This document shows, one piece after another, positions 4,035 to 22,313 of a DNA stretch of 64,000 bases. The notes under the pieces are model-generated. The model ran no database searches. It was not told where the DNA came from and saw nothing but the letters and a program-made list of their open reading frames with translations. Source of the DNA: Chrysaora quinquecirrha (Eukaryota > Cnidaria > Scyphozoa > Semaeostomeae > Pelagiidae); assembly GCA_014526335.1 (NCBI GenBank), contig JACTAT010000042.1:879541-943540 (forward strand). Direction: 5' to 3'. A program made the translations under genes and the position numbers. Numbering within the stretch: the first letter of the stretch is position 1; every line of letters starts with the position of its first letter.

Positions 4035-4289
4035 AGTAGGTTGCAAGGTCGGCTCCGGGCTAGCACAGGGGTACGGCTGTCAGTGACGTCATCAGTGACG
4101 TCATCATGTCGCGCTATAGTGCGACGGTTTTTAACCGGTTTCTCCAACCTCGTTTTCAAGAGTCCCAGATCCTAGCGCACGCCGCTCCTACTACCAATAA
4201 CGTCATAAGGTCACGCTATAGTGCAAAGAGTTTCTCCAACCTTAACCGTTAACCTCGTTTCCGATTTAACAATCTAGAACTTTCCAGAA
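4035..4289 (+). repeat. left terminal inverted repeat of the Polinton
   Basis: Matches the reverse complement of 23253-23507 over 255 bp with only a handful of mismatches, mostly near the AACGTCAT and CTATAGTGC segments. It contains two perfect CRE palindromes, a near-palindrome around GCTATAG, an AACCGGTT palindrome, and at its inner edge the start of a heat-shock-element array. Confidence 0.95.
4084..4103. promoter_or_regulatory. two perfect CRE palindromes in the left terminal repeat
   Basis: TGACGTCA occurs at 4084-4091 and again at 4096-4103, twelve bases apart. This is the consensus site of the CREB/ATF bZIP family. The mirror pair lies in the right terminal repeat at 23439-23446 and 23451-23458. 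Whether it is used for transcription or only as a structural palindrome cannot be seen. Confidence 0.6.
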
Positions 4290-4480
4290 GTTTCGAGAAG
4301 TTTCCAGAAATCCTACAATCTGATTGGTTAGAACTTTCCAGAAAGTTCCAGAAAGTTCCACAAGATTCTAGAAACGAGAAATCCTGCAATCTGATTGGCT
4401 AATTATGATAGCGTAATAATTCGAACGCGACGTTCGAATCGTTTATGAAAATCGAGGCGTAAAGCGAAATCAGTTCAGTT
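4277..4480 (+). promoter_or_regulatory. promoter A: two heat-shock-element arrays, two NF-Y boxes, TATA-like and initiator motifs
   Basis: Array 1 has seven alternating GAA/TTC units spaced exactly 5 bp (first bases 4277, 4282, 4287, 4292, 4297, 4302, 4307). Array 2 has nine positions from 4331 to 4371 at the same spacing, only the seventh (CAA at 4361) being degenerate. This is the nGAAnnTTCn architecture bound by heat-shock factor. CTGATTGGTTA (4320-4330) and CTGATTGGCTA (4391-4401) match the NF-Y consensus. A palindrome with 9-bp arms lies at 4419-4439, then TTATGAAAA near 4443 and a doubled TCAGTT initiator-like motif at 4470-4480, about 28 bp downstream. The gene starts at 4492. Confidence 0.75.
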
Positions 4481-4491
4481 AGAAATTAATC

Positions 4492-5169
4492 ATGAAGAGA
4501 AGTAGTCAAGAAGCAGGTTTTCAACCAACTTCATCGAAGAAGAGAATTCGATTTTCTTGTCATGTTTGTCAGAAACACTTTAGCTCAAGAATCAAAATGA
4601 GATGCCACATGATGTCTATACATTCAACTCCATCTATTCTATCAACTTCTCAAATTATACGTTGTGGAAAGTATTTACAACTACCTACATACATCAAAAA
4701 CAAGCGAGCCGTCATCAATGTACAGAACGAAGACGATAAATGCTTCATCTGGGCAATTCTATCCGCTCTACATCCACCAGCAGGAAATCCACATAGAGTT
4801 GCAAAGTATCGTCCATACTTAGATGAACTTAACTGTGAAGGATTGACATATCCAGTAAAAGCATCCGATAAAAAGATGATTGATACATTTGAAGTCAACA
4901 ACAACATTTCAATCAACATCTATATGGATGAAGATGGTGAAATTGTACCAGTAAGAATAACTGGAAACAAACGTGAAAAACATGTGCATTTGCTATTGGT
5001 ATTCAATGACGATGGTGAGAGTCACTATTGCTGGATAAAGGACTTGAGTCGTCTTTTTGCAGGTCGAGATGGCTACAAACATAACCGAAAACGTTTTATC
5101 TGTCCTCTATGCTTATCGTCGTGTAGAACTCAAGAAAATTTGGAAAAGCATGAAAAGTTGTGTAAATAA
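4492..5169 (+). CDS. stand-alone OTU-like domain protein with two zinc fingers, derived from the polymerase N-terminus
   Basis: A 225-aa intact protein closely similar to the N-terminal part of the polymerase encoded at 15906-19714 in this element. Residues 23-44 form a C2H2 finger (C23, C26, H39, H44). DDKCFIWAI (81-89) and ESHYCWI (176-182) resemble the D-x-x-C and H-Y catalytic signatures of OTU-family cysteine proteases, giving candidate residues D81, C84 and H178. Residues 204-224 form a C2HC finger. Compared with the polymerase it lacks about 140 residues between the first finger and the OTU-like part, and everything after the second finger. An AATAAA signal overlaps the stop codon (5165-5170). 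A second, broken copy lies inverted at 20183-20891. Deubiquitinase activity is an inference; a DNA-binding role through the fingers is the alternative. Confidence 0.75.
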   Translation: MKRSSQEAGFQPTSSKKRIRFSCHVCQKHFSSRIKMRCHMMSIHSTPSILSTSQIIRCGKYLQLPTYIKNKRAVINVQNEDDKCFIWAILSALHPPAGNPHRVAKYRPYLDELNCEGLTYPVKASDKKMIDTFEVNNNISINIYMDEDGEIVPVRITGNKREKHVHLLLVFNDDGESHYCWIKDLSRLFAGRDGYKHNRKRFICPLCLSSCRTQENLEKHEKLCK

Positions 5170-5359
5170 AAGACATGTTTTTAATTTCCTCGAAACATTC
5201 GTTTAAATACTAACATTAGAATATCTATAAATTGTTTTAAAGTTGTTGTAAGTTCTATAGAAATTGTTATTATTCAATTACTCAAGATTAACAAGAGTTT
5301 AATTACTAAAGACTCCTCCTCCTCAGCGTTAGATTCATAGCGTTAAAAATTATGTAAGA
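5170..5359 (+). other. 3' flank of the OTU-like gene
   Basis: AT-rich sequence after the AATAAA at 5165-5170, without an open frame of note. It is mirrored in reverse complement at about 19975-20182, as part of the extended inverted repeat. Confidence 0.6.
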
Positions 5360-5670
5360 ACCCTGCAATCTGATTGGCTAGAACTTTCCAGAAGTTTCGA
5401 GAAGTTTCCAGAAATCCTACAATCTGATTGATTATGATGGCGTAATAATAATTCGAACGCGACGTTCGAATCGTTTATGAAATAAAATAACACAATAATC
5501 CTGCAATCTGGATAACTAGAACTTTCCAGAAACTTCCAGAATGTTCCACAAGATTCTAGAAACGAGAAATCCTACAATCTGATTGATTAATAATTCAAAC
5601 GTCACGCCTGATTTAACAGAGAATCTCCATAGTATAGCTATATAAATCGAGAAGAAGCAACAGTCTGGTC
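5360..5670 (+). promoter_or_regulatory. promoter B: two heat-shock-element arrays, NF-Y box, TATA box
   Basis: The NF-Y match CTGATTGGCTA is at 5370-5380. Heat-shock array 1 has seven perfect 5-bp-phased units, 5381-5413. The 9-bp-arm palindrome is at 5451-5471. Array 2 has nine positions, 5519-5561, again with one degenerate CAA unit in the same place as in promoter A. A clear TATATAAA is at 5639-5646, 47 bp before the Bcl-2-like start codon. It probably drives the tight four-gene group 5693-7410. Confidence 0.75.
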
Positions 5671-5692
5671 ATACCACTCGATAGATGCGAAG

Positions 5693-6181
5693 ATGATTTC
5701 ACTAGCTTACCTCATATTCAACGCTGTGAAGAAAGAGCGGGAATTAACTAGAAAGAATCTAGTTGCATATTCTTTGGAGAGGAACTATGAATGTCGCAAT
5801 TTAGAAGTTATATCTTTCGAGAGACAATCAATCCCCATCAACAGTTCATACTATTATTGGATGCGAGATCTTCTAACATATGTAAGAGCTAGCTCTAATA
5901 ACTCAATAAAGTCCCGAGTAGAACAACATCAAGTCTTATCCAAGCTAGAAGCTAAAGACCTAGTTTGTGAACTTTTTTCAATTATGGATAAAGAAGGAAA
6001 TTGGGGAAGAATGGCTGTGTTAATGATTTTTATTGAAGAACTTGCTGATGGTTTAATGAAATATCATGATAGGACTGTAGCAACATCATTCATAGAAGAA
6101 ATAAAAGAAGAAATCAATGATAAAGCATTAGGAGATTGGGGTGAAAAACTACTAATTGACTCTGATTCTTTCATGATATAA
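5693..6181 (+). CDS. Bcl-2-like protein (putative apoptosis regulator)
   Basis: A 162-aa protein. The key signature is ELFSIMDKEGNWGR (93-106): the NWGR tetrapeptide preceded by an E-L-F helix is the BH1 hallmark of the Bcl-2 family. A BH2-like GDWGEKL segment follows near the C-terminus (147-153, W149) at about the spacing seen between BH1 and BH2 in family members. BH3 and BH4 are not clear, and there is no C-terminal membrane anchor, so the protein is probably cytosolic, as in several viral members. The family controls mitochondrial outer-membrane permeability; viral members usually block host cell death. The start is the first ATG in frame after the TATA box. The next gene begins 10 bp after the stop. 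Pro- versus anti-apoptotic function cannot be told from sequence. Confidence 0.72.
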   Translation: MISLAYLIFNAVKKERELTRKNLVAYSLERNYECRNLEVISFERQSIPINSSYYYWMRDLLTYVRASSNNSIKSRVEQHQVLSKLEAKDLVCELFSIMDKEGNWGRMAVLMIFIEELADGLMKYHDRTVATSFIEEIKEEINDKALGDWGEKLLIDSDSFMI

Positions 6182-6191
6182 GTTGTCTTAA

Positions 6192-6701
6192 ATGACTACA
6201 TTCAATTATATAGAAATAATGCTAAATTCAATTAATGAAACGGAAAATGAAGTTGGTGATTTACATGATGCCTCTATCTATTTGAAAACTATTAGAGAAT
6301 ATACCAATCGATTAACAATTAGTATAATAAAAGAAGCGCATTCCTTTATCATATATGAAAACTATGGCGAATTTGCGCAAAACCCTCGAATAACATGTTT
6401 CAATGAAGAATACTTTGAATATTGTAAACCTGAAGATATTGAGAAAGAACTTGCTAAACTCTTAGATGATAGAACTATTCAACCTCATGAATTTCTGCGA
6501 AAGTTTTTACAAATACATCCTTTTCCGGATGGTAATGGTAGACTGGCGAAACTCTTGTATTGTTTTCTGTCTAATAAATGTGTAATATGGGAAGATCAAG
6601 AAAAGTATATAAAGGCTTTAAGAAAATCTGATAAAAGTTTACAAGAATATCTAAGTCATCTCAAATCTCTTATAAATACAATACATGCACCTAGTAATTA
6701 A
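6192..6701 (+). CDS. Fic-domain protein (putative AMP-transferase)
   Basis: A 169-aa protein with a canonical Fic core HPFPDGNGR at residues 109-117. The histidine is the catalytic base and the GNGR loop binds the nucleotide phosphates. Fic enzymes usually transfer AMP from ATP to hydroxyl side chains of target proteins. The protein is little more than the Fic fold: no signal peptide, membrane segment or TPR domain is visible, unlike animal FICD. The inhibitory (S/T)xxxE(G/N) helix motif is not present in exact form; S13 with E18-N19 is one residue off, so it may be unrestrained or use a variant. It sits 10 bp after the Bcl-2-like gene and 2 bp before the next ORF, so it is presumably co-expressed with them. 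The target is unknown. Confidence 0.88.
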   Translation: MTTFNYIEIMLNSINETENEVGDLHDASIYLKTIREYTNRLTISIIKEAHSFIIYENYGEFAQNPRITCFNEEYFEYCKPEDIEKELAKLLDDRTIQPHEFLRKFLQIHPFPDGNGRLAKLLYCFLSNKCVIWEDQEKYIKALRKSDKSLQEYLSHLKSLINTIHAPSN

Positions 6702-6703
6702 AG

Positions 6704-6997
6704 ATGGGTAAGCGTAAGAGGCAGGATAGAAAGAAACAGCGTACAAAGCGACGACGCATAAAGAGAATTAGAGGTAAAGGTCTTTTTAAAAACCTACAAA
6801 ATTGGATTGTCAAAACAGCGATTGGCATTACACCATTACCAGGCTTACAGCGCGAATTGAAACCGAGAATTAGGAAAAAGGGGTGGAAAAAAGATAAACC
6901 TTTACAATTTATCCCTAGAGAAGTCTGGAGAGCTGCGGGGGTACCAAAGAAAACGCTAGATAAATTCGCATATGCTAAAAAATCCGATTTCAAATAA
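6704..6997 (+). CDS. small highly basic protein, virion core-like
   Basis: A 97-aa protein whose first 26 residues are dominated by Lys/Arg, followed by a moderately hydrophobic stretch (about 27-48) and a second basic segment. This resembles in composition the DNA-binding core proteins of adenovirus-like particles, but I see no specific family signature. IRGKG (22-26) fits the adenain cleavage consensus (I/L/M)-x-G-x-G and would remove the basic N-terminus. Its TAA stop overlaps the next start codon (TAATG at 6995-6999). Assignment as a core protein is an inference from composition, the cleavage site and context. Confidence 0.6.
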   Translation: MGKRKRQDRKKQRTKRRRIKRIRGKGLFKNLQNWIVKTAIGITPLPGLQRELKPRIRKKGWKKDKPLQFIPREVWRAAGVPKKTLDKFAYAKKSDFK

Positions 6998-7410
6998 TGG
7001 CATCATTAGCAGGAACTATTATTGCTTCAATGATTATTGATGATATGTTAAAAAATGATGGCGGACAGGAAGCATTCGAGTTGATGGGAGGTGGCTATAA
7101 AAGGAAGTCAACATTAGAAAATTCTAGAAAGATGGGGTCCGCATTAGCGCGAGCAGCAGTTAGACAAGCAATTAAGCAAGGAGGAAGAGCAGTGACTAGA
7201 AATATTAGCAAACAAGCCGTAAAGAAATTCGCGTTAAAAGGAGCAAAAGCAGCTGCAAAAGGCGGTGCCATAGCTGCAACTGGTTTAGGTGTTGAGACTG
7301 GTTTAAGAAAATTAGCTGGCGGCGGTGTGAGAAGAAAGCGTAGAAAGCGACTTAATGGTGGTAGGAAAACAACCAGAAAACATAGACGAAAGAAGAGAAA
7401 AATTCGCTAA
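6997..7410 (+). CDS. basic Gly/Ala-rich core or minor capsid protein with three adenain-type sites
   Basis: A 137-aa protein: a hydrophobic N-terminus (1-18), an Ala/Lys helical middle, and a very basic C-terminus (110-137). Three sites match the adenain consensus (I/L/M)-x-G-G-x: LMGG|G (cleavage after 32), LAGG|G (after 109) and LNGG|R (after 122). Their positions would release an N-terminal peptide and one or two basic C-terminal peptides, as with adenoviral precursor core proteins. The element encodes its own adenain-like protease at 15304-15789, which supports the reading. The start codon overlaps the previous stop by 1 bp. I cannot name an exact orthologue. Confidence 0.68.
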   Translation: MASLAGTIIASMIIDDMLKNDGGQEAFELMGGGYKRKSTLENSRKMGSALARAAVRQAIKQGGRAVTRNISKQAVKKFALKGAKAAAKGGAIAATGLGVETGLRKLAGGGVRRKRRKRLNGGRKTTRKHRRKKRKIR

Positions 7411-7439
7411 TCTGATTTTCAAAAAAAAAACGTAATAAT

Positions 7440-7675
7440 CCAGCAATCTGGGTAACTAGAACTTTCCAGAAAGTTCCATTCCAGAACTTTCCAGAATGTT
7501 CCTAAAATGACGTAATAATCCTGCAATCTGATTGGTTGGAATTTTCCAGAACTTTCCAGAAAGTTCCACAAGATTCTAGAAACGAGAAATCCTGCAATCT
7601 GATTGGTTAATAATTCGAACGTCACGTTCGATCAAACTATAAAACCGATGCGTAAAATCAAATCAGTTCAGTTGT
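7440..7675 (+). promoter_or_regulatory. promoter C: two heat-shock-element arrays, NF-Y boxes, TATA box, initiator
   Basis: Array 1 spans 7459-7501 and array 2 spans 7539-7581, each with nine positions at 5-bp phasing. Array 1 has one TTC-TTC step at 7474/7479, and array 2 has the familiar degenerate CAA unit at 7569. NF-Y matches lie at 7529-7539 and 7599-7609. The palindrome starts at 7613, TATAAAA is at 7638-7644, and the doubled TCAGTT initiator-like motif is at 7663-7673, 25-30 bp downstream of the TATA box. The ATG of the 327-aa gene is at 7722. Confidence 0.8.
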
Positions 7676-7721
7676 AACAAGTCGTCGTAGAGTGCGGAGC
7701 TTAAAAAATCACTAAAGAGTC

Positions 7722-8705
7722 ATGGCTGCAATTTATGAAGTTAGAGATGAAGAGGGCCTAATCAAGTCATCATTTGGTGTCCAACCCGGTTCTAACAAAT
7801 GGTTGTTAGTGGTGAAAGATACAATTAAAGATGGATTAGCTGTTAAATCAATGGCTATTTCTCATGCAGCACTGGCTCGTCTCTTGGAAATAGTTGGTGA
7901 AAACATAAACGATCAATTCCAGTTCCGCGGAGAAGATGCTGAAAGTCTGTTTGAGAAGAACAAAGCACACATTCAATCAAAGCAGTACTTTGGCAGAATC
8001 ACACAGTTTCTAACACTATACACTGAAGTTTTGAGCAAAGAAGAAGCGTATGAGGATAAGCTGGAAATCTATTTGCAGAAAAATGGTGATTTCCCTCTAC
8101 GACTCTGTCTTGGAATTCGAAGATGGAAGAATGAGAAGCCATCAAAGACGGGAATAAATCTGAAAGAAGAAATGCTGAAAGCATTATATGAAAAGGTTGC
8201 TGATCTGAAAATGCTTCCACAACCATCCCGAAAAAGACCAGCGAGTGATGATGATGAACAGATTCAAAAGAAGAAAAAGAAACAAGAAGAAGAAGATCCG
8301 ACAAAGATTGATGTTCAAGTGCAAGAAGCATATGCCGAACTTCTCCTGAAATATATTTTCAACAAAGCAAAAGAGTATTGTGAAAAGTGTGCAACTACAG
8401 AGATGTGGGCAAAACAAATTGATGCTGCTGATCATAAGCAAGATTGTATGATACATAATGCTTTTAGATTTCTAACATTTCACATTAGTTATGTCAACTC
8501 CGACATGCTGGCTGAAGGGAAAGAATCGTTTAAGAAATCAATGTTTGATGAGCTGAAGAAGAAGAATGGCCGACTGAATCAAACAATCAAATTCAGAGTT
8601 GAAAATCTGCATGATGAATTATCTCATCCAAGGCTCTTCACATCGATGTATCTGTTGCAAATATTGAGCAGAATAATAAACAATTTAATCATGGCATTTG
8701 CCTAG
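7722..8705 (+). CDS. unknown 327-aa protein, probably nuclear
   Basis: I do not recognise a family. The protein is intact and has its own well-formed promoter. The N-terminal 140 residues look globular. A basic-acidic-basic linker around residues 169-195 (SRKRP then a run of five lysines) resembles a bipartite nuclear localisation signal. The C-terminal 130 residues are predicted from composition to be mainly helical and contain a CEKCATTEMW segment and several His and Cys residues, but no standard zinc-finger spacing. It lies between the accessory genes and the decayed ATPase. A role in DNA binding or early regulation is possible but unproven. Confidence 0.7.
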   Translation: MAAIYEVRDEEGLIKSSFGVQPGSNKWLLVVKDTIKDGLAVKSMAISHAALARLLEIVGENINDQFQFRGEDAESLFEKNKAHIQSKQYFGRITQFLTLYTEVLSKEEAYEDKLEIYLQKNGDFPLRLCLGIRRWKNEKPSKTGINLKEEMLKALYEKVADLKMLPQPSRKRPASDDDEQIQKKKKKQEEEDPTKIDVQVQEAYAELLLKYIFNKAKEYCEKCATTEMWAKQIDAADHKQDCMIHNAFRFLTFHISYVNSDMLAEGKESFKKSMFDELKKKNGRLNQTIKFRVENLHDELSHPRLFTSMYLLQILSRIINNLIMAFA

Positions 8706-8746
8706 ACTGAACGTTGTTATTCATGAGATGTTTAAAATTAGTGAAC

Positions 8747-8826
8747 ATTAGTTTGGTGTTATAGATATTAGTTTGATGTTATAGATATTAGTTCAATGTT
8801 ATAGATATTATTTCAATGTTGTAGCT
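8747..8826. repeat. 20-bp tandem repeat, about four units
   Basis: Units like ATAGATATTAGTTTGATGTT recur every 20 bp with small changes. They lie between the end of the 327-aa gene and the ATPase remnant, where the ATPase N-terminus would be expected, so this may mark the deletion that removed it. Confidence 0.75.
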
Positions 8827-8858
8827 AGATGTAAGCGGAGTAACAATATTCCAATCTT

Positions 8859-9392
8859 ATGTGGATCTCGGGAACAAATCAACCGGAATTGTTTGAGTGC
8901 ATTAAAAAAAGTTTTAACGGGAATTGTAGATTTATTACTGAGCTACCTGAAAACTTGTACGAAGAAATCGAAAAATCAGACAAAAGATTAACTATTGTTG
9001 TCGATGGTTTAATGCATTAAATTGCCAACTTTAAAGTTTTGGGAAAATTGTTCACAAAAAGAAGATCTCATCTAAACATCAACGTCATTGTTATGATGCA
9101 AAACCCTTTTCCAAGAGGAACAGAAATGAGAAATTTGGCTCTAAATACTCAATATCAAGTTCTTTTCAAGAATCCTTGCGATAGAAGTCAAATTAGATCT
9201 CTTGCATGACAAATTATACCCTCATCTCCAAAAACATTCCTTGACATTTACATAGATGCAACAGCAAGAATGTACGGGTACTTACTTTGTGATTTCACAC
9301 AATCGATTGGAGAAGATATGAGGTTTTGCACCAATATTTTCCCTAATGAAGCTCTTTTAGTGGTGCACAAATCTAAAAAAGACTATAAATAG
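8859..9392 (+). pseudogene. decayed packaging ATPase (FtsK/HerA, A32-like) lacking Walker A
   Basis: A single frame of 178 codons from the ATG at 8859 to TAG at 9390-9392, interrupted by TAA at 9018-9020 and TGA at 9207-9209. Family motifs remain: TIVVDGLM is the Walker B strand (with DG where DD or DE is usual), NVIVMMQNPFP is the sensor-like strand with its conserved Q-N, and MRNLALNTQYQVLFKNP and the final GYLLCDF segment are typical of Polinton genome-packaging ATPases. The N-terminal 50-60 residues that should hold the Walker A loop are missing, with a short tandem repeat in their place. The protein would power DNA entry into the capsid; here it cannot be functional. Confidence 0.85.
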
Positions 9393-9421
9393 ACATCAAC
9401 AATTCAGTAAAAACATTGAAA

Positions 9422-9602
9422 ATGGATTCTTTTGAGAAGATAGTCATGGAACCAAGCAAATCTGACGATGAACCAGTGAAGAAAAAGCCTAAAAAGGTTA
9501 TAAATAAATATAAATAAAGGAAGAAAGTATAAGAAAAGAAAGCGACGAAGAAAAAAGTGTACAACTGTTAAATTGTTAGAATTGTTAATTGATTTATTAT
9601 GA
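9422..9602 (+). pseudogene. small basic ORF, apparently frameshifted
   Basis: An ATG at 9422 opens a 31-codon frame ending in TAA (9515-9517) with an acidic start and a basic end (KKKPKKV). In another frame the following sequence continues with a strongly basic stretch (KYKKRKRRRKK) and stops at TGA 9600-9602, which overlaps the integrase ATG at 9599. This looks like one small basic protein gene with a frameshift near 9505-9517. No function is recognisable. Confidence 0.4.
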
Positions 9603-10657
9603 GTTTAGAAAAGTTATATTCTGATCCTTCTGTTCCGGGCTCTCTGGGGGGTTTGGATAAAGCGTATAGGGAATTCAAAAAAGTGATTCCTAATTTGAAA
9701 AGGAAAGATGTTGAAGAGTGGAGTAAAACTAGTCTTGCATATTCACTGCACAAACCAAGTAGGAGGAACTTTAAACGAGAGTGGATACTAACCAATAACA
9801 CTGATTATTTGTAGGAATGTGATCTTGTTGATATGATGCAATTGTAATAATAAAACGACAACATTACATTCCTATTATGCTGTATTGATACTTTTAGCAA
9901 GGAATGCGTGGGTAAAGCCTCTAAAATGAAAAACTGCAAAAGAATTGTCAATGCGTTTAAAAGAAATTTTATCGGAAAGAAAACCTAAAAAGGTACGATC
10001 CGATAAAGGCATTTAGTTTATAAACAAAGAATTCCAAGCTTTGTTAGAGAAAAACAATATTGGGTTTTACACTGCAAATAACGAAGAAAAGGCAGCAATT
10101 GTTGAACGATTTAACAGAACATTAAAAGGACGAATGTATAGATACTTTACAGCACGAAATACGTTGAGATACATTGATAATTTACAAGATTTTGTCGACT
10201 CATACAATAATACATACTACAGATCTATTGGTATAAGACCTTTTGAAGTCAACCAAGACAATGTCGACGCTGTTTGAAAAGACTGTTTAAAAAGAAACGA
10301 AAAAATAAAAAGCTTTTCAAAAATGGAGATTATGTAAGGTTGAGTTTGAAAAAGAGAATGTTTAAGAAAGATTACCTGCAAAATTATACTGAAGAAATAT
10401 TCAAGTTCAGTAAAGTCTTTAAAGAAAGATATCCAGTAATGTATGAAATTGAAGATCTACAAGGTGAAAAGATAGTTGATTATTTTTACAAAGAAGAGCT
10501 ACAGCGTGTGTATCTTCCAAAAACATTTGTTGTCGAGCAAGTGTTGAAAACTAAGAAAAAAGGAGGCAAAGACTTCTATTTAATCAGATGGCGAGGTTAT
10601 CCTACACAATTTGATGAGTGGGTAGCTGTACCTGTACGTCAATTAGAGACAATATGA
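9599..10657 (+). pseudogene. decayed Polinton integrase with C-terminal chromodomain
   Basis: The N-terminus (9599-9814) has the usual Polinton integrase opening: DPSVPGSLGGLDKAY, then a helix, then AYSLHKPSRRNF. A TAG (9812-9814), a run of TAA codons (9845-9853) and shifts near 9985 and 10275 break the gene. The three catalytic regions of the DDE core can still be found: a DLVDM segment (about 9821), RSDKG (about 9997) and the EKAAIVERFNRTLK segment with the glutamate (about 10090). The last part (10274-10657) has an SH3-like stretch and a chromodomain (FVVEQVL, then YLIRWRGYP, then FDEWV). The intact protein would insert the element and make the 6-bp duplication; the chromodomain would guide it to chromatin. 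The stop overlaps the next ATG (ATGA). Confidence 0.9.
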
Positions 10658-11460: not shown

Positions 11461-11486
11461 CTAACAGTTAGAATTAGGCCGGTAAT

Positions 11487-12773: not shown

Positions 12774-12813
12774 AAAGCAAAGACAACATTCTTGCTACAC
12801 TTTACAAGGAAAC

Positions 12814-13266: not shown

Positions 13267-14582
13267 GCATAAAGCCAGAATATACTGAATGTCCTAGTGA
13301 AAGTTTGGATTTATTCTGCCCACCAGTAATTCAAAACGATGTCAAGTATTTTAAAGATGTTGAATATTTTCCACAAACTGCTGCTCTCAATGCCTCAAAA
13401 CAAACTGTTGTGTTTGACATTCCTGCTCAGCCTGATCATATGATTGACTTGAATCATTCTTATTTCGTCTCGACTCTGGCTATTAAAAGAGTCGATGGAA
13501 GTAATATTGGAAAAACCACTGCAGAATTTGCTGGAGTAATAAATAATATTGGCCAATCCATGTGGAAGCAGATAGAGCTGGTTTTGAATGACACTCCCGT
13601 CACAGAAGCAAATGGAATGTATGCCTACCAATCTTACTTGGAAACAATTCTGACGTTTGATGAAACCAGAGCTAAAAACTATTTGAAAATGACAAACTGG
13701 GTCAGTGATACGATTGGGAAAGAAAATGTTGGTTTTCCAACAACAGCATCAGTAAAAAATCTGGGTTTAAATGCAAGATCTGCACCATTTGACGAGAGTG
13801 AAAAGGTTAAAGTGTTGACAAAACCTCATGTCAACATTTGCAATCAAAGCAAATACTTGCTGCCTGGTGTTCGTCTTCAATGGCGATTGAGTCCAAACAG
13901 TGATGTGTTTTGTTTGATGAGAAAAGCTGGAACCACTTCGCGCTTATACATTTCCGAAGTGAAACTGGTGCTTCGTCACATACATCTTAAAGATGATGTA
14001 TTGAAAGGAATTGAAAGAACACTGATGAAAACGAATGCGGTTTACCCAGTCTGTCAACCTCACATGGCAAGCTACTTAATCAATGCTGCAACAACCAACT
14101 GGGTTCAAGATAATGTATTCAACGGAAAGATTCCAAACAGATTGTTTTTTGCGCTGGTTGATAATTCATCATTCAATGGAGCGGATGAAGGAAATCCTTT
14201 TGAGTTTGAACATGCTTCTGTTTCTGCCATTCAAGTGACTGTTGACAATCAGGAAATTACCCCACCTCTAAGATTGAATTATGATGATGATGATTACTTT
14301 GATGCCTACAGCCGCTTGGTGACCAGCTTGAATAATTCACCTAGTCTAATTGATTATGATAGATTCAAACAAGGATCAGCAATCTATGGGTTTGATTTGA
14401 CACCAAAAGGAAACTGTGCAGATGAGCAATATTTGCTTAAAAGAGAGGGTAACCTGAGAATCAGTATAAATTTTGCAAACGCTGTTGACAGTTTGATGAA
14501 CATTGTAATTTTGGGTGAATTTGATAGAGTCATTCAAATTGATAGTCATAAAAACATCATTCGAGATCAGGGGCGCAAATGA
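13263..14582 (+). CDS. major capsid protein (double jelly-roll type)
   Basis: A 439-aa open protein. The opening (ESLDLFCPPVIQNDV), the FDIPAQPDHMIDLNHSYF strand, the SMWKQIELVLNDTPV strand, AYQSYLETIL, and the end (EGNLRISINFANAVD, NIVILGEFDRVIQID) match the Polinton major capsid layout, which is a double jelly-roll that forms the hexon-like trimers of the shell. Position before the adenain-like protease and after the pVI-like gene agrees. The final four codons and the stop come from a hAT MITE inserted at 14568; the pre-insertion frame on the far side would have ended one codon later (TGG TAA at 15296-15301), so only the extreme C-terminus is altered. Compared with many Polinton capsids it is on the short side. 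Confidence 0.85.
   Translation: MSIKPEYTECPSESLDLFCPPVIQNDVKYFKDVEYFPQTAALNASKQTVVFDIPAQPDHMIDLNHSYFVSTLAIKRVDGSNIGKTTAEFAGVINNIGQSMWKQIELVLNDTPVTEANGMYAYQSYLETILTFDETRAKNYLKMTNWVSDTIGKENVGFPTTASVKNLGLNARSAPFDESEKVKVLTKPHVNICNQSKYLLPGVRLQWRLSPNSDVFCLMRKAGTTSRLYISEVKLVLRHIHLKDDVLKGIERTLMKTNAVYPVCQPHMASYLINAATTNWVQDNVFNGKIPNRLFFALVDNSSFNGADEGNPFEFEHASVSAIQVTVDNQEITPPLRLNYDDDDYFDAYSRLVTSLNNSPSLIDYDRFKQGSAIYGFDLTPKGNCADEQYLLKREGNLRISINFANAVDSLMNIVILGEFDRVIQIDSHKNIIRDQGRK
14560..14567. repeat. left 8-bp target duplication of the hAT MITE
   Basis: TTCGAGAT, repeated exactly at 15288-15295. An 8-bp duplication is diagnostic of hAT transposition. Confidence 0.93.
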
Positions 14583-15287
14583 GGGGGGGTGTGGGGGGGT
14601 GTGACACCCCCCCAATAATTTTGCCAACCGGTCCCAGTAGCTACTTTATAGTGATAAAGTCGGTCCCGATCCGGCTCTGAACTAAATTATTTCCATTTTC
14701 AATAGTAATAAACAGAGTTGTACCCGAAACCCAAAGAAAAATCGGTAAAAAATTGCTCTCATGCAGATCATTGAACATTGAACTTAATTCACCACGCTGT
14801 TTTGCATAGCAGGAGATAGTGATGATGTTTTCTTGAAAGAACAAATTAGCAAACAAAAGGGCCAGAGCAGCTAGGCGGGACAACTTTCGGCCAATTGCAA
14901 CCCAATCCCTTCATGACAGTACAATGTATTGGTAGTCAATACTGCCGTTAGTCAGGAGATGCCTAGCTGTACAACAAAGACAAGTTGTGTCAGCCATTTC
15001 TGGCCTTATTTTTTATGTTTCTGGACAATTCCGGGCGTCAGGCGACAACATCGACATAAATTTTGACAAAACTTGTTGTTTCTTAGGTTTTCTTCAACAG
15101 CTGGGCTGCGCAAAAAATACATTAAAAGAGTCCTGAAATGGTCACCAGAGCGATTCTAGCAACCCAATTTTTCAAAATTTTCCGGGGGAGCAACCTAGGT
15201 GGGTGCGATTTTCGGCACACAAAGACCAATACCCTTCGGTCCCACTTCATGACACCCCCCCAATAATTTTTTCGATTTGCGCCCCTG
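14568..15287. mobile_element. 720-bp non-autonomous hAT transposon (MITE)
   Basis: Begins CAGGGGCGCAAAT and ends with its exact reverse complement (13-bp terminal inverted repeats), flanked by the 8-bp duplication TTCGAGAT. Just inside both ends lie G7/C7 runs with a TGACACCCCCC motif and an AATAATTTT segment that extend the inverted symmetry. There is no transposase; the longest frames are under 85 codons and random. It landed in the last codons of the capsid gene and inside the gap before the protease gene, without disturbing either reading frame. Confidence 0.95.
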
Positions 15288-15303
15288 TTCGAGATTGGTA
15301 ATT

Positions 15304-15789
15304 ATGGATGATATAACGATTAATAACTTACTTGTAAAACGTGAAAAGCTACCTCATTTCCATGGTGTATTTGGGAAAGATGAAATCAAAAACATCGACA
15401 TTCATTCTCTACCTTGTTCATTTATTTTCAACGAAGATAATTTTACTGGTAAAGGAACCCACTGGGTAGCTGTCTATATTGCTGATGATGGTCGATTGGA
15501 TTTCTATGATTCGTTTGGTGAACCTCCTATGTTGAAAGAATTTCTACATTTTATTAGACCGTTTCAGCTCACTTATAACAAGGTTCAAGTTCAATCCTAT
15601 GAGAATGCTACATGTGGACAACATTGCATATTCTTTCTAATCAATAGAACAAAAAACGTTTCAATGAACTCGATGGTTAATAAATATTTCAACATTCATA
15701 ATAAGTTAGATAACGATTTATTTGTTTACAACTATGTTAAACGAAGATATAATTTAAGTTTGTTAAAACAATTTGTTACAGCAATTTAG
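15304..15789 (+). CDS. adenain-like cysteine protease
   Basis: A 161-aa protein with every catalytic element of the adenovirus protease family: THWVAVYI with H53, FYDSFGEPP with D69 (third member of the triad), and QSYENATCG with Q97 for the oxyanion hole and C104 as nucleophile. The Q-to-C spacing of seven equals that of adenain (Q115/C122). The enzyme matures capsid and core precursors; matching sites are present in the basic proteins at 6704-7410. The ATG at 15304 is chosen because it is the first in frame after the MITE and its target duplication. Gene length is a little shorter than adenain (about 204 aa), as is usual for Polintons. Confidence 0.93.
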   Translation: MDDITINNLLVKREKLPHFHGVFGKDEIKNIDIHSLPCSFIFNEDNFTGKGTHWVAVYIADDGRLDFYDSFGEPPMLKEFLHFIRPFQLTYNKVQVQSYENATCGQHCIFFLINRTKNVSMNSMVNKYFNIHNKLDNDLFVYNYVKRRYNLSLLKQFVTAI

Positions 15790-15900
15790 AATAATGTTAC
15801 AACAGTTTGTTAAAATAGTTTAGAATAATGTTACAACAGTTTAGTTTAGAATATTGTTACAACAGTTTAGTTTAGAATATTGTTAAAATAGTTTGTTAAA
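15790..15900. repeat. AT-rich tandem repeat between convergent genes
   Basis: Units such as TTTAGAATAATGTTACAACAG recur about four times with a period of roughly 26-34 bp. It fills the space between the stop codons of the protease (plus) and polymerase (minus) and may carry both 3' ends. No clear terminator hairpin is seen. Confidence 0.65.
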
Positions 15901-15905
15901 ACAGT

Positions 15906-18900
15906 TCAATCAATGTTTTCTTCTTCGCAGCGTCTTTCTAGCGAATAATGTCCATATGGCAGCGTGTTAAATCCATCATCAAGAATGTATCTTTTATCGT
16001 CAAAGGGATTCAGCGATGCCTTTTTTCTTTCCGTAGTGTAGATGGTGTGACAGTGTGATTCAATGTTGCGTTGAATGTGCGCATCTGCTCTCATTTCCAT
16101 CAAACATTTCACATAATCTTCATGCTTCATTTGCTTCTTCACAACATACTTTTTGATTCCTTTCGCTTTTTTGATCGTATTTCCATCATTGATTTGACAG
16201 CTATACATCTTTGATCTTAATCCAACAAATTCTTTCATTCCCACACCACCAAGCTCGTCTTTCATTTTCCCAATAACTTTCTTGTTTCTTGTAGAGTAAT
16301 TTGGATGTTCTTTATCATAATTGCTGAAATCGAATCCATCTTCGTGATCTTTCAATACTTTATCAACTTGATCTTTAGACATTGGTATGTCGTAGATGAA
16401 ACTATCAGTATCCATGTAGCATAGCTCAACATTTGGAAGGTTTGGCTTTGCAAAGTTATAGTGGAAATCATACATCAATGTTTTGCTAATATCTAATATG
16501 CTGAAACCAATATACATTGGTTTGTTGAGTGTAACTTTCTTCTTCTTTTTCTCAACCAAAAGCGTGTCTTCGTTGATTTCAATTACTCCGTAAAAGTTTG
16601 GATTTCTTACCCATTTTCTCAAGACTTCTGCATCAGTACAGATTTCAAAACGCCGATGATTTCGAACATTTTCCATCGTCTTCCCGAACACGGAATTGTT
16701 CATCAACTTGAACAGATCTTTTTCAAAGTCGTTTCTTGCACGAGTTCTCTTCTGAGTATTAAAATCAATGTATTCTTTCAACCATAGACTTTGCTTGAAT
16801 TCAATGATTTCATGAACTTTTGTCAGCTTCAAACCCAATTCCAAACACTGCTTCAAATTTCTTTCATGTATGAGGTATTCTTCTTTGTTGAATAGATTTG
16901 GTATTAGCTTTGGTGTTGACTTAAACTTTTTTCCATCGAAAAGTTCTTCGTGAGCGTTCCTTTGATGTTCAGATAACATGTCTTCTTGAACTTGAAATCT
17001 TTGCGGCGCTAATGGTAGATCTGCATGATGATCGTGTAATTCGGCTGGATATTCCAAGTCGACTTTGAGAATATAACCAACATCTTCATTCGATCTTGTC
17101 AGCAAAGCGTGGATGTTTGTATTTCTGATTTCTTCTTGTGTAAACTGCTTGAAACCACCATACGGCATTGGTTGCGACATTGCCCAACCATAAAGATTGT
17201 TTGCATCCAGATACATCAGCGTGTTGTTTTCTGTTGATTTAGCATGCCGTTTCACTGCTATCGAGACACCACCACGAATACCATCTTCAATCATAAGGAG
17301 AATGTCCTTCTTTTCTTCAGATAACAATTCCAGCTTCACACCAGTCATCTTCAGCATCGCATCCCAGGCCAGCGAAGGAGCAGTTAGATAATGTGCAGGA
17401 TCGAGTCCGTAGAATTCCAGACTTTGTGCTCTGAACGACTCGAATATATCAGCCAACAGCAACACATCGGTTTTCAAGTATAGTTCATGATAATCTTGAA
17501 AAGTCCGACAGTTGAAGTATCGCCAAACCTGCTGAGCATGTTCATAATCTTCATTGCTGATGTCAGAATCACAGAGTTTGTTGTAAAATGCTTCTTTCGG
17601 TGGTAGAGATGTTTCTTCCATTTTCGCTGCACTGTCCATCCAATCGTAGGGATAAACACCTTTTCTTGTCAGCAACTCAAATGCTCTCTCAACTTCTTCA
17701 GCTTCAGCATCTGTCAAATCTCTCCTCGATGGTATTTTCCAATTTCTATAATCTAGAACATCTTCATCTTTAAACGGGTTTTTACATGCTACACCAGGCT
17801 CAAACATTCCTTGACGTTCTCTTTTCAATTCTGCAACTCTTTCCTGCTCATTTCTCGGTACACTAGGGTACTGCTGTTGAGTAATCTCATCATGTAGGTG
17901 ACCTTTGATAGAGACAAATTGTTCTTTCGGTAGGTTGCCTGCTAGTGTTGCCAAACTTGTACTCAGAAATGCAAAGGAGTCAATGTATTTGATCCCATTG
18001 ACATTTCTTTCCTTACCATCTTCATTCACATCAGTATGAGAACCAATCTGTGCAGTCATGATCTTTTCTTTCGAATTGGCAATGATCTTTGTATTTCTAC
18101 CTTTCAAATTCTTCAGAACATGATGCATGTCATACCCTTTGAGATTGTGGAAGACGATCGGGATCGTGTGAGTGTTTGCTATTATATCTAGATGATTAAA
18201 GTTGCAATACTTGCAAGCTGGTCCTCTGTATTTTCCAGTTATGTGGCAATGATCTTTGACTTTTCTTCTATTGTTACCATCAAATAGCTGCTTGCAGCAA
18301 TAGCAGTGTGTAGCCATATCATGTCTTGCATTTTCTTCGGGTGTTAATCTAATCATCGGCATGGTTTTCTTGAACACTGCTCGGATTTCCTCATTCAATT
18401 CATCTAGGCGATTCATCAACACCTCCATGCAGTCTTCACCAGTATAGCATTCCAACGGTTGTTGCCATCTATCATCGATTGATTTGACATAAATGCAATA
18501 ACTGATCGGCTTGTGTTCTTGATAAGCAGCTCTTTTGTTTGAGCTTTTCAGAATGGATTCAGTATCTGCATAGATGATAAATGGTAGCCAGCACTGATGT
18601 TTGAAATGTTCAAACTTTAATTCTGTATCTTGAGGATATTCAACAGCTTGAGTGGTCTGGCATAGCTTTTCATGCTTTTCCAAATTTTCTTGAGTTGTAC
18701 ATCCTGATAAGCATAGAGGACGTAAAAACGTTTTCCGTGATGTTTGTGACCATCTCGACCTGCAAAAAGACGGCTCAAGTTCTTTATCCAGCAATAGTGG
18801 CTCTCACCATCGTCATTGAATACTAATAGCAAATGCACATTATTTCCAGTTATTCTTACTGGTACAATTTTGCCATCTTCATCCATATAGATGTTGATTG

Positions 18901-19714
18901 AAATGTTGTTGTTTATTTCAAATGTATCAATCATCTTTTTATCAGATGCATTTACTGGATATGTCAATCCTTCACAGTTAAATTCATGTAAGTATCGCCG
19001 GTACGGTGCGGCTCTCTCTGCATGTGTTGATTGGGGATGTAGACGGGATAGGATTGCCCAGATGAAGCATTTATCGTCTCTGTTCTGTACATTGAGAATG
19101 GCTTGCTTGTTTTTGATGTATGTAGGTAGTTGTAAATACGTTCCACCACGAATTGCATCATAATCAAACATCTTCACTTGTAGTTGGGTAAACTTTGTAA
19201 ATATCCAACCACTTCCATTCTCCAAGAATTCTTCAACCTTGTCTCGCAGTGTGTTGATAGCTTCAACTACCTGATCTTCAACATAGTCATACTCTGCCTT
19301 TAACAACGTCTGCACGGTGGTTCTGAATGTGGGTGGTGGTTCTGTAACGATAAGCTTATCACCATACTTTTTAAATTCTACATCGATAGTGATATAATAC
19401 TTTATCCCCTGCTTGTGGTTTGGCAATTCTTCTTTAATTTCTCGAATAGTATGCTGTGTGATTCTAGTCCAGTCTTTGATATCTTCTTCTTCGGTATATA
19501 TCCTGAATGCTTTCTTATCCATCTTGTTCATGTTCTTACCTTCACCGACTAATTTATTTTGTTCTGCTGCTGACGGATGTATATCATGTGCTGTTCGCTT
19601 ATGTGATGCGAGATTTAACAATCTGTCAAACAATTTCCCACATACATCACAAGCGATTTTTCTTCGCTTACTATTATTGGTAGCTGAGCTCTCCTCTTCG
19701 TGTGACCTCTTCAT
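15906..19714 (-). pseudogene. polB: protein-primed DNA polymerase B, split by one frameshift
   Basis: Two overlapping minus-strand frames: 19714-18617 (N-terminal) and 18794-15906 (962 aa, main body). Comparison with the two OTU-like copies places a 1-base deletion at about 18718-18728. N-terminal part: C2H2 finger (C22, C25), extra 140-residue region, OTU-like DDKCFIWAI (213-221) and ESHYC. Main body: C2HC finger, exonuclease motifs I (D77, E79), II (N217, Y221-D222) and III (Y439, D443), a Cys/His cluster at 181-199, polymerase motifs A (D530, LDANNLYGWAM), B (K696, FKLMNNSVFG) and C (YMDTDS, D795/D797), and the thumb EFVGLRSKMYS. All catalytic residues are kept, so the frameshift appears recent. 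Full length would be about 1,270 codons, usual for the family. It replicates the element from protein-primed ends. Confidence 0.92.
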
Positions 19715-19734
19715 GATTAATTTCCAACTAGGCT

Positions 19735-19965
19735 GATTTCGCCTTACGCTTCGATTTTATAGATTGATCAAATGTGACGTTCGAATTATTACACCATCGT
19801 AATTAATCAATCAGATTTCTCGTTTCTAGAATCTTGTGGAACTTTCTGGAAACTTCTGGAAAGTTCCAACCAATCAGATTGCAGGATTTCTCGTTTCTAG
19901 AATCTTGTGGAAGTTTCTGGAAATTTCTGGAAAGTTCTAGTCATCCAGATTGCTTGATTATTACA
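19735..19965 (-). promoter_or_regulatory. promoter D (polymerase): two heat-shock-element arrays, CCAAT, TATA box
   Basis: On the plus-strand numbering, array 1 runs 19824-19866 and array 2 runs 19895-19937, each with nine positions at exact 5-bp phasing and one degenerate unit. A CCAATCAG (NF-Y type) lies between them. TATAAAA reads on the minus strand at 19761-19755, 41 bp from the polymerase ATG, preceded by the same TTCGAACGTCAC half-palindrome as in promoter C. Confidence 0.78.
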
Positions 19966-20042
19966 TCATTTTAGCGCTGCGAATCTAACGCTGAGGAGGA
20001 GGAGTCTTTAGTAATTAAGCTCTTGTAAATCTTGAGTAATTG

Positions 20043-20142
20043 AATTATAGCAATTTCTATAGAACTTACAACAACTTTAAAACAATTCATAGAATTATAG
20101 CAATTTCTATAGAACTTACAACAACTTTAAAAAAATTCATAG
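20043..20142. repeat. 50-bp tandem duplication
   Basis: The segment beginning ATTATAGCAATTTCTATAG occurs twice in a row with one substitution. The left arm of the inverted repeat has a single copy. Confidence 0.85.
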
Positions 20143-20182
20143 ATATTCTAATGTTAGTATTTAAACGAATGTTTCGGGGAAA

Positions 20183-20891
20183 TTAAAAACATGTCTTTAA
20201 TTTACAAAACTTTTTGTGCTTTTCCAAATTTTCTTGAGTTCTACACGACGATAAGCATAGAGGACAGATAAAACGTTTTCGGTTATGTTTGTGACCATCT
20301 TGACCTGCAAAAAGACGACTCAAGTCCTTTATCCAGCAATAGTGGCTCTCACCATCGTCATTGAATACTAATAGCAAATTCACATGTTTTTCGCGTTTAT
20401 TTCCAGTTATTCTTACTGGTACAATTTCGCCATCTTCATCCATATAGATGTTGATTGAAATGTTGTTGTTTATTTCAAATGTATCAATCATCTTTTTATC
20501 AGATGCATTTACTGGATATGTCAATCCTTCACAGTTAAGTTCCTCCCAGTATGAGTAATACTTTGCAACTCTCTGCGGATTTTTTGCTTGTGGATGTAGG
20601 GCGGATAGAATTGCCCAGATGAAGCATTTATCGTCTTCGTTCTGTACATTGATGATGGCTTGCTTGTTTTAATATACGTAGGTAGTTGCAAATACTTTCC
20701 ATTCCACAACGTATAATTTGAGAAGTTGATAGAATAGATGGAGTTGAATGTATAGACATCATGTGACATCTCATTTTGATTCTTGAGCTAAAGTGTTTCT
20801 GGCAAACATCACAAGAAAATCGAATTCTCTTCTTTGATGAAGTTTGTTGAAAACCTGCTTCTTGACTACTTCTCTTCATGATTAATTTCAA
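20183..20891 (-). pseudogene. broken second copy of the stand-alone OTU-like / zinc-finger gene
   Basis: The start (MKRSSQEAGFQ) and first C2H2 finger are open in frame 20891-20628. The reading then passes into a second frame (to about 20521) and a third (20524-20183), so at least two small indels break it. The OTU-like cysteine segment falls in the shifted part, while the ESHYCWI segment and the second finger are intact. The original stop codon has changed, adding four residues. It shares with 4492-5169 the same internal deletion relative to the polymerase, so both copies come from one truncated ancestor duplicated in inverted orientation. Confidence 0.88.
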
Positions 20892-21115
20892 ACTGAACTG
20901 ATTTCGCTTTATGTCTCGATTTTCATAAACGATTCGAACAACGCGTTCGAATTATTTTTACGCCATCACAATTAATCAATCAGATTATAGGATTTCTCGA
21001 AACTTCTGGAAACTTCTGGAAAGTTCTAACCAATCAGATAAGGATTTCTTAGGGATGCTCTGGAACTTTCTGGAAACTTCTAGAAAGTTCTAGTCAATCA
21101 GATTGCAGGCGAAAA
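20880..21115 (-). promoter_or_regulatory. promoter E: two heat-shock-element arrays, CCAAT, palindrome
   Basis: Array 1 spans 20994-21026 (seven units) and array 2 spans 21063-21090 (six units), all at 5-bp phasing, with CCAATCAG between. A GTTTATGAAA TATA-like motif and AACTGAACTGATTT (the doubled initiator in reverse) precede the broken OTU-like copy. It is the counterpart of promoter A. Confidence 0.7.
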
Positions 21116-22289: not shown

Positions 22290-22313
22290 TTAGTTTTAAT
22301 CTTGTAGTTCTAT

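What the first reader, a model, noticed from the sequence alone, without database searches (positions are those of the whole stretch)
4277..21090. Ten phased heat-shock-element arrays in the promoters of a Polinton
Seen directly: five intergenic regions each hold two arrays of alternating GAA/TTC units at an exact 5-bp pitch, six to nine positions long (4277-4309, 4331-4373, 5381-5413, 5519-5561, 7459-7501, 7539-7581, 19824-19866, 19895-19937, 20994-21026, 21063-21090). A further four-unit element adjoins the right terminal repeat. Known: nGAAnnTTCnnGAAn is the binding site of heat-shock factor, and three units already suffice. The arrays are interleaved with NF-Y consensus boxes, the combination found in hsp70 promoters, and followed by TATA and initiator motifs at normal spacing. 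Inference: transcription of polymerase, OTU-like, Bcl-2-like/Fic and 327-aa genes is tied to host proteotoxic stress. I know of no description of this for Polintons.
Basis: partly seen in the sequence, partly recalled or inferred. Interest (0 to 1): 0.92.

Follow-up and report, generated by a model that had tools for sequence, protein, structure and literature searches.

The report
Heat-shock switches inside a Polinton
A virus-like mobile element in what appears to be an animal genome carries paired, well-formed heat-shock binding arrays in front of its replication and cell-survival genes, which suggests that it switches on when its host cell is under protein-damaging stress.

Summary
The window carries a decayed 19.5-kb Polinton (4035-23507) with ten phased GAA/TTC arrays in five promoters and a four-unit one in the right terminal repeat. 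The element has 9 exact runs of at least 6 units; 200 dinucleotide and 200 trinucleotide shuffles of it gave none of 5 or more, and the other 44.5 kb has no run of 3.

Evidence for heat-shock factor (HSF): in all 11 module copies the core of units 1-4 is invariant while spacers vary; TTCnnGAA spacers are pyrimidine-purine in 22 of 25, above the window background of 8 of 19; in three promoters the arrays lie 84-206 bp upstream of initiator-like motifs.

Corrections: the arrays are duplicates of one module; the 'OTU-like' gene is a copy of the polymerase N-terminus; TATA and initiator are not in every promoter; the orientation is the less common one in Drosophila. Expression is untested. Seventeen distant polymerase relatives, mostly short contigs, have no array. 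C. elegans Helitron1_CE is a proven HSF-driven transposon, so this is a new variant; my searches found no report for Polintons.

The parts
4035..23507 (.). Polinton/Maverick element, decayed copy
   Evidence: Termini AGTAGG...CCTACT and GAATTT on both sides; gene content
4035..4298 (+). Left terminal inverted repeat; inner edge holds the first four HSE units of array A1
   Evidence: Inverted-repeat pair I3, 97% complementary; 8 mismatches of 263 (frame off by one base)
23244..23507 (-). Right terminal inverted repeat
   Evidence: sequence
4277..4309 (+). HSE array A1, 7 exact units
4331..4373 (+). HSE array A2, 6 exact units + 1 defective + 2
5381..5413 (+). HSE array B1, 7 exact units
5519..5561 (+). 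HSE array B2, 6 exact units + 1 defective + 2
7459..7501 (+). HSE array C1, 4 + 5 exact units in one 5-bp register
7539..7581 (+). HSE array C2, 6 exact units + 1 defective + 2
19824..19866 (-). HSE array D2 (proximal to PolB gene), 6 exact units + 1 defective + 2
   Evidence: D1 and D2 lie in a 71-bp tandem duplication 19814-19953
19895..19937 (-). HSE array D1 (distal), 6 exact units + 1 defective + 2
20994..21026 (-). HSE array E2, 7 exact units
21063..21090 (-). HSE array E1, 6 exact units; units beyond 6 decayed
23248..23265 (-). Four-unit HSE at inner edge of right TIR; TIR partner of A1 units 1-4
4321..4329 (-). NF-Y-type CCAAT box between A1 and A2 (consensus recalled)
   Evidence: 7 RRCCAATSR sites in the element, all in these promoters, 1 outside
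7600..7608 (-). NF-Y-type CCAAT box downstream of C2 (others at 4392, 5371, 7529, 19868, 21028)
7638..7644 (+). TATAAAA of promoter C (also 5641 in B, 19755 minus strand in D; A and E have TTTATGAAAA instead)
7663..7673 (+). Initiator-like TCAGTTCAGTT of promoter C (also 4470 in A and 20891 minus strand in E); motif name recalled
4420..4438 (+). TTCGAACG..ACGTTCGAA palindrome downstream of the arrays (exact copy at 5452; degenerate copies in C, D, E); factor unknown
4492..5169 (+). ORF225: copy of parts of the N-terminal region of the PolB protein, under promoter A
   Evidence: Inverted repeats I2, I6, I13 with the PolB 5' end and I1, I4 with the second copy; 41% identical over 191 aligned columns to residues 195-385 of PolB relative P0002
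5693..6181 (+). Bcl-2-like protein, under promoter B; contains NWGR (BH1-type motif, recalled)
   Evidence: Pfam Bcl-2 E 7.5e-5, 23.6 bits, below the cut-off of 31.4; no PDB match up to E 1
6192..6701 (+). Fic-domain protein with HPFPDGNGR motif
   Evidence: Pfam Fic E 5e-11; best PDB match a Fic-domain protein 1.5e-5, then FICD 2.8e-4
7722..8705 (+). ORF327, under promoter C; N-terminal half possibly a tandem PC4-like fold (weak)
   Evidence: 7 homologues up to E 1e-3; Pfam PC4 E 0.044; low-confidence model with two bbbba units, pLDDT 43; no PDB profile match up to E 1
15906..19714 (-). PolB gene under promoter D, split by loss of frame into ORFs 15906-18428 (stop-to-stop frame 15909-18803) and 18617-19714
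   Evidence: relative P0002 (1237 aa) matches the first at 62% over 99% and the second at 38% over 393 columns from residue 1
20186..20879 (-). Second, frame-broken copy of ORF225 under promoter E
8844..10654 (+). Remains of ATPase and integrase in broken frames (by inspection), ending in a chromodomain
   Evidence: Pfam Chromo E 4.4e-6; of six pieces searched one gave rve_3 E 0.024 behind two unrelated weak hits
11014..15789 (+). Capsid-region genes (by inspection) and protease; no HSE run of >=3 units in 8703-15910
   Evidence: Pfam Peptidase_C5 E 0.009, below cut-off, for 15304-15786
4084..4103 (.). Two TGACGTCA (CRE/ATF-type, name recalled) sites in left TIR; partners 23439 and 23451, a fifth at 23236 beside the right HSE
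   Evidence: 5 sites in the element, 0 outside

Best explanation
The arrays are genuine multi-unit heat-shock elements that serve as the main upstream activator sites of a Polinton's promoters. Trimeric host HSF, active under proteotoxic stress, would bind the two arrays of each promoter cooperatively, with NF-Y on the CCAAT boxes between and beside them. It would switch on the polymerase, ORF327 and a Bcl-2/Fic cassette, so that the integrated element replicates when its host cell is stressed while delaying that cell's death. Shown: arrays, statistics, core-versus-spacer conservation, position upstream of ORFs, gene identities as stated. Inferred: HSF binding, start sites, inducibility, role of NF-Y, benefit to the element.
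For: Far above chance and specific to GAA/TTC at pitch 5. Core columns of units 1-4 invariant in all 11 module copies (0 of 12 variable) against 4 of 6 spacer columns, Fisher p 0.005; 0 of 7 minimum changes in the core, binomial p 4.6e-4. A search with 18 flank pieces free of array letters gave 5 hits outside the known regions, each 13-21 bp, so no decayed module was left out. TTCnnGAA spacers pyrimidine-purine in 22 of 25, above the background of 8 of 19 isolated dyads (p 0.0025), as stated for HSEs in PMC8379338 (passages). Six to nine positions where three define an HSE, and more units go with a stronger response (PMC2871787 passages). In A, C and E arrays lie -206 to -84 from the A of TCAGTT. 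7 NF-Y-consensus boxes, all in these promoters. Precedent: Helitron1_CE (PMC6765114, PMC6927752 passages).
Against: No expression or binding data. Copies are related by duplication, so the p-values overstate. The low pyrimidine-purine share of GAAnnTTC (3 of 33) does not differ from background (0 of 10), so only half of the spacer asymmetry is informative. All ten promoter arrays begin distally with nGAAn, the less common class in Drosophila (157 of 393). 17 distant PolB relatives (100,630 bp, mostly short contigs) contain no run of >=3. The five long arrays are identical after unit 6, spacers included: homogenisation or another constraint. TATA or initiator is missing in some promoters. An HSE can also repress (human UBC proximal HSE, PMC4552642 passages). 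This copy is dead.
Confidence: 0.65

Rival explanations
1. The arrays are bound by HSF, but the benefit is germline or early-embryo expression and not stress. The element would use HSF to be transcribed in the cells where transposition is inherited.
For: The same sequence evidence as for the main reading. Active HSF sites in Drosophila are mostly at non-heat-shock genes (title of PMC3021535, listing); HSF roles in gametogenesis are recalled.
Against: Long arrays go with strong heat-shock response. The Bcl-2 and Fic cargo suggests a stressed or infected cell.
Confidence: 0.22
2. The arrays are a neutral tandem or dispersed repeat that spread by duplication and has no regulatory role.
For: Modules are clearly duplicated, including a 71-bp tandem pair, and spread with the PolB 5' end into three copies.
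Against: Spacers and flanks have diverged while the cores of units 1-4 have not. All runs of >=4 units lie in non-coding DNA, ten arrays upstream of genes and one in the TIR.
Confidence: 0.08
3. The arrays are binding sites for an element-encoded protein (integrase, replication initiator or viral activator), used for replication or transposition.
For: One array lies at the inner edge of each TIR. The element encodes candidate DNA-binding proteins (zinc fingers, ORF327).
Against: Ten of eleven are in gene promoters in fixed orientation to the gene, with CCAAT boxes and, in most, TATA or initiator. The motif is exactly the host HSF site.
Confidence: 0.1
4. The arrays bind another dyad factor such as STAT (TTCC..GAA-like).
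For: TTCCAGAA resembles a STAT-type dyad (recalled).
Against: STAT sites have a 3-4 bp spacer (recalled) and do not come in alternating runs at 5-bp pitch; the GAAnnTTC half would be unexplained.
Confidence: 0.03

Closest known systems
Helitron1_CE of Caenorhabditis elegans (HSF-1-driven DNA transposon; PMC6765114, PMC6927752, passages seen)
   Same: A DNA transposon whose own gene promoter carries many HSEs (14 upstream of the Rep-helicase gene F33H12.6), bound by HSF-1 and induced by heat in an HSF-1-dependent way.
   Different: A rolling-circle element with a Rep-helicase. Here a virus-like element has the module repeated in five promoters, including Bcl-2-like and Fic cargo. Function is proven there and inferred here.
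Metazoan Polintons/Mavericks with Endonuclease VII-type PolB (best 120 of 7985 hits listed; mostly unnamed ENA, named: Montipora foliosa, Gigantopelta aegis, Bradybaena similaris)
   Same: PolB architecture; TIRs and target duplication of the Polinton kind (recalled).
   Different: HSE arrays are not in the 17 PolB-bearing loci I could read; those are 32-51% identical in the best segment and mostly short.
hsp70-type promoters of animals
   Same: HSEs of 3 or more units within about 400 bp of the start; CCAAT boxes next to them (recalled); TATA in some.
   Different: Arrays of 6-9 positions in two blocks per promoter, inside a mobile element.
Latent viruses that use HSF (KSHV and EBV lytic-switch promoters and HSF2; PMC12047821, search listing and start of abstract only)
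   Same: A host HSF regulates viral lytic-switch genes.
   Different: Herpesviruses, through chromatin at switch promoters, not arrays in five promoters of one element.
ONSEN retrotransposon of Arabidopsis (recalled, nothing seen)
   Same: Heat-activated element with HSF sites in its LTR.
   Different: LTR retrotransposon of a plant.

Membership tests
Heat-shock element (HSE) | At least three alternating inverted nGAAn units at 5-bp pitch (PMC8379338) | tested here: met
   11 arrays of 4-9 positions; 9 exact runs of >=6
Heat-shock element (HSE) | Pyrimidine-purine in TTCnnGAA spacer, unrestrained GAAnnTTC spacer | tested here: met
   22 of 25 against background 8 of 19; GAAnnTTC 3 of 33, not different from background 0 of 10
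Heat-shock element (HSE) | Core conserved, spacers free | tested here: met
   Units 1-4 in all 11 copies: 0 of 12 core and 4 of 6 spacer columns vary; the units 1-6 version uses 9 copies chosen for having them and is partly circular
Heat-shock element (HSE) | Binds HSF and confers stress induction | not testable with these tools
   Needs binding and expression data from the host
Polinton/Maverick | About 15-25 kb, TIRs, 6-bp target duplication (recalled) | tested here: met
   19.5 kb; TIRs 97%; GAATTT on both sides
Polinton/Maverick | Protein-primed family B polymerase | tested here: met
   By relatives: 840-aa part 62% identical over 99% to P0002; 6 of the 120 listed hits carry PF03175 (DNA_pol_B_2, name recalled). 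The window protein itself gave only Endonuclease_7 in Pfam
Polinton/Maverick | Retroviral-type integrase, packaging ATPase, adenain-like protease, capsid proteins | tested here: inconclusive
   Chromodomain E 4.4e-6; Peptidase_C5 E 0.009; rve_3 E 0.024 on one piece; ATPase and capsid identity by inspection only; no PHROG hits
HSF-driven transposon (Helitron1_CE kind) | HSEs in the element's own gene promoters | tested here: met
   Five promoters, two arrays each
HSF-driven transposon (Helitron1_CE kind) | HSF-dependent induction by heat | not testable with these tools
   No expression data; host not identified
HSF-driven transposon (Helitron1_CE kind) | HSEs shared by sibling copies | tested here: inconclusive
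   Own-genome search not answered; 17 distant relatives have none

The most novel reading that the evidence does not exclude
An animal integrated DNA virus has wired its replication and survival genes to the host's HSF, giving a eukaryotic counterpart of prophage induction. Proteotoxic stress (heat, or another infection) triggers genome replication under Bcl-2 protection, while the capsid-region genes, which lack arrays, follow by another route. The Fic protein, distantly similar to the chaperone-modifying FICD (function recalled), might act back on the chaperone system that HSF controls.
Probability: 0.35. Interest if true: 0.88.

Novelty: new variant of a known kind. Interest (0 to 1): 0.7.

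Why it matters
What triggers Polintons to leave the genome or make particles is, as far as I know (recalled), an open question. A promoter set wired to HSF gives a direct hypothesis and a simple test: heat the host and measure transcripts and free element DNA. If true, it extends HSF-driven mobilisation from a rolling-circle transposon to a virus-like element that carries cell-survival genes, and would link heat waves to activation of endogenous viral elements. It could also make new insertions portable heat-shock enhancers for neighbouring host genes, as Helitrons do in C. elegans (PMC6927752, passages).

Tried and rejected
Sibling elements: PolB as a single protein found nothing in IMG/VR. 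The PolB profile confirmed 2 loci there (of 72 pattern matches) and 15 in GTDB contigs (of 115; MAG titles are bacterial or archaeal, so mis-binned eukaryotic or viral DNA is my inference); none of the 17 has a run of >=3 units. The 439-aa capsid-region protein and ORF327 found no relatives in IMG/VR.

Array patterns in IMG/VR: a six-unit pattern matched 15 stretches, several with the same array sequence; each fetched stretch has a single run of >=4. I printed larger ORFs of 6 of the 15: those I could recognise look like phage genes by inspection; the other 9 were not annotated. An 18-base module pattern matched 3 stretches with one four-unit run each. I take all 18 as unrelated, by inference.

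Host identity: the RT-type ORF beside the element has 102 hits, mostly ENA and unnamed; the only organism named is a bacterial MAG. The organisms I saw named among the 120 listed PolB hits are two gastropods and a coral at 42-50% identity. Host left open.

Structure models of ORF327 (pLDDT 43) and the Bcl-2-like protein (pLDDT 40) are too weak for fold searches; none was run. PDB sequence searches with the ORF327 profile and the Bcl-2-like protein found nothing up to E 1. PHROGs gave nothing for 7 proteins.

A core/spacer test on 9 copies and units 1-6 (0 of 18 against 7 of 10 columns) was partly circular, because those copies had exact six-unit runs; two of 11 copies (C1, TR) were dropped from it. 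I rely on units 1-4 in all 11. Mismatch rates over all BLAST pairs (core 0.016, spacer 0.285, flank 0.119) include register-shifted pairs, which inflate the spacer value. The flank search used 45-base flanks that held letters of neighbouring arrays; it was repeated cleanly.


Full report
Observation. I recounted alternating GAA/TTC units at 5-bp pitch over the whole window. Exact runs are 7, 6, 7, 6, 4+5, 6, 6, 6, 7, 6 and, at the right terminal repeat, 4 units; the nine-position spans contain one defective unit (ACAAG). In 19,471 bp of element there are 13 runs of >=3 and 9 of >=6; 200 dinucleotide and 200 trinucleotide shuffles averaged 0.55 and 0.745 runs of >=3 and produced none of >=5. 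Shuffling the promoter stretches alone (500 each) gave on average 0 and 0.002 runs of >=5. The other 44,529 bp has none of >=3 (all). Other reverse-complementary triplet pairs at pitch 5 reach at most 3 runs, and GAA/TTC at seven other pitches at most 2.

The element. Termini are AGTAGG and CCTACT at 4035 and 23507, with GAATTT on both sides. TIR arms are 97% complementary. The 840-aa PolB part is 62% identical over 99% to a 1237-aa relative, and the upstream ORF 18617-19714 matches the N-terminus of the same relative (38%), so the gene is split between two frames. A chromodomain (E 4.4e-6) and a weak adenain-like protease match (E 0.009) were found by Pfam. ATPase, integrase core and capsid proteins rest on inspection; the first two are broken into pieces, and Pfam gave one of six pieces rve_3 at E 0.024, behind two unrelated weak hits. 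This copy is therefore dead. Pfam shows no OTU family up to E 0.1 for the 4492 ORF, for 18617-19714 or for P0002.

Anatomy of the promoters. Five promoters (A 4240-4491, B 5340-5692, C 7410-7721, D 19715-20000 minus, E 20880-21130 minus) align. Each has a distal and a proximal array flanked by CAATCTGATTGG or degenerate forms of it; six exact copies of that 12-mer are in the window. On the other strand it reads CCAATCAG, an NF-Y-type box (recalled). The consensus RRCCAATSR occurs 7 times in the element, all in these promoters, and once elsewhere. Downstream come a TTCGAACG-type palindrome, a TATA box in B, C and D, and TCAGTT in A, C and E. From the A of TCAGTT, the arrays of A, C and E lie between -206 and -84; in B and D they lie -312 to -132 and -223 to -110 from the ATG. 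There is no run of >=3 units in 8703-15910, the block of ATPase, integrase, capsid-region and protease genes.

Duplication and selection. The arrays are copies of one module; D1 and D2 are a 71-bp tandem pair. Ten arrays are not ten independent origins. Using all 11 copies in register over units 1-4, 0 of 12 core columns and 4 of 6 spacer columns vary (Fisher p 0.005; binomial p 4.6e-4). Eighteen flank pieces free of array letters find only five 13-21-bp hits outside the known regions, so decayed modules were not silently excluded. Against my reading: beyond unit 6 E1 has decayed, C1 has lost a unit, and the five long arrays are identical after unit 6 including spacers, which needs recent homogenisation or another constraint.

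Specificity for HSF. In passages of PMC8379338, HSEs are at least three alternating nGAAn units, the TTC-GAA step often has a pyrimidine-purine spacer and the GAA-TTC step is unrestrained. In the 12 runs of >=4 units, 22 of 25 TTCnnGAA spacers are pyrimidine-purine against 3 of 33 GAAnnTTC spacers. Isolated dyads in the window give 8 of 19 and 0 of 10. So the TTCnnGAA excess stands out (p 0.0025), the GAAnnTTC value does not (p 1.0), and the background itself is asymmetric (p 0.027). Passages of PMC2871787 say that unit number relates to the size of the response, that HSEs lie typically within 400 bp upstream, and that gapped HSEs are common, which fits the ACAAG gap; they also say that arrays starting with nTTCn are preferred (236 of 393), whereas all ten promoter arrays here start with nGAAn.

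Genes behind the promoters. D: PolB. A and E: copies of part of its N-terminus. B: a Bcl-2-like protein (Pfam E 7.5e-5, below the gathering score; NWGR present) followed by a Fic protein (E 5e-11; FICD among PDB relatives, E 2.8e-4) and two basic proteins. C: ORF327, with seven homologues found, perhaps tandem PC4-like on weak evidence. On this evidence the HSE-bearing promoters serve replication and host-cell survival.

Relatives. Seventeen loci with PolB relatives (32-51% identity in the best segment, 100,630 bp) have no run of >=3 units; most are short contigs that may not include promoters. In IMG/VR a six-unit array occurs in 15 stretches, one each, and 3 more matched a module pattern. 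The host genome could not be searched because that tool did not complete (seven attempts).

Prior work. Helitron1_CE in C. elegans has HSEs bound by HSF-1 and HSF-1-dependent heat induction (PMC6765114 passages), and one copy of its Rep-helicase gene has 14 HSEs in its promoter (PMC6927752 passages). Searches Polinton + heat shock (26 papers, 20 listed), Maverick + heat shock + transposon (25, 20 listed), Polinton + promoter motif (11, 10 listed), adintovirus + Bcl2 + promoter (0) and Polinton + Bcl-2 + sponge (0) showed no title about HSF control of a Polinton; I saw listings only. In passages of PMC6505742 a sea-anemone transcript matching Polinton-2_PH is up 5.95-fold in acidified seawater, where an Hsp70 transcript is up 146-fold. 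That is only a lead: two other transcripts in the same table of transposon hits carry the identifiers of Hsp90 and Grp94, so the table includes false matches. The library lacks most subscription journals.

Changes on checking. After the background control for spacers and the orientation result I lowered the main reading from 0.77 to 0.65, the germline rival from 0.30 to 0.22 and the novel case from 0.40 to 0.35; the readings overlap and need not add to one.

Verdict. A real, non-random, HSE-type cis-regulatory design in a Polinton; the regulatory inference is strong on sequence and untested in function. New variant of a known kind.

Noticed in passing
25215-62187 (and 23834-24036, 62250-63998): A 104-bp satellite of about 356 copies fills most of the window right of the element; the longer ORFs printed there look like reading frames of this repeat.
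   Followed up: partly
4084, 4096, 23236, 23439, 23451: Five exact TGACGTCA palindromes (CRE/ATF type, recalled), in or beside the TIRs, none elsewhere in the window: a second stress-related factor family may act at the element ends.
   Followed up: partly
4420-4438, 5452-5470, 7614-7632, 19767-19785, 20933-20951: TTCGAACG..ACGTTCGAA palindrome, exact or degenerate, between arrays and start in the promoters; no factor assigned.
   Followed up: no
6192-6698: Fic-domain protein beside a Bcl-2-like protein; PDB matches include FICD, which modifies an HSP70 chaperone (the chaperone link is recalled).
   Followed up: partly
14580-15250: Non-coding stretch between capsid-region and protease genes bounded by similar C-rich sequence, perhaps an inserted small transposon (by inspection).
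   Followed up: no
21265-21612: 184-bp direct duplication (96% matches) between promoter E and the right TIR; a 111-codon open frame follows at 21954-22286.
   Followed up: no
2671-3525: Reverse-transcriptase-type ORF on the minus strand beside the element; 102 relatives, mostly in unnamed ENA records.
   Followed up: partly
L004, L006, L015: IMG/VR stretches with single 8- or 10-unit GAA/TTC alternating arrays overlapping reading frames of G+C-rich contigs (L004 and L015 share one array); reason unknown.
   Followed up: no
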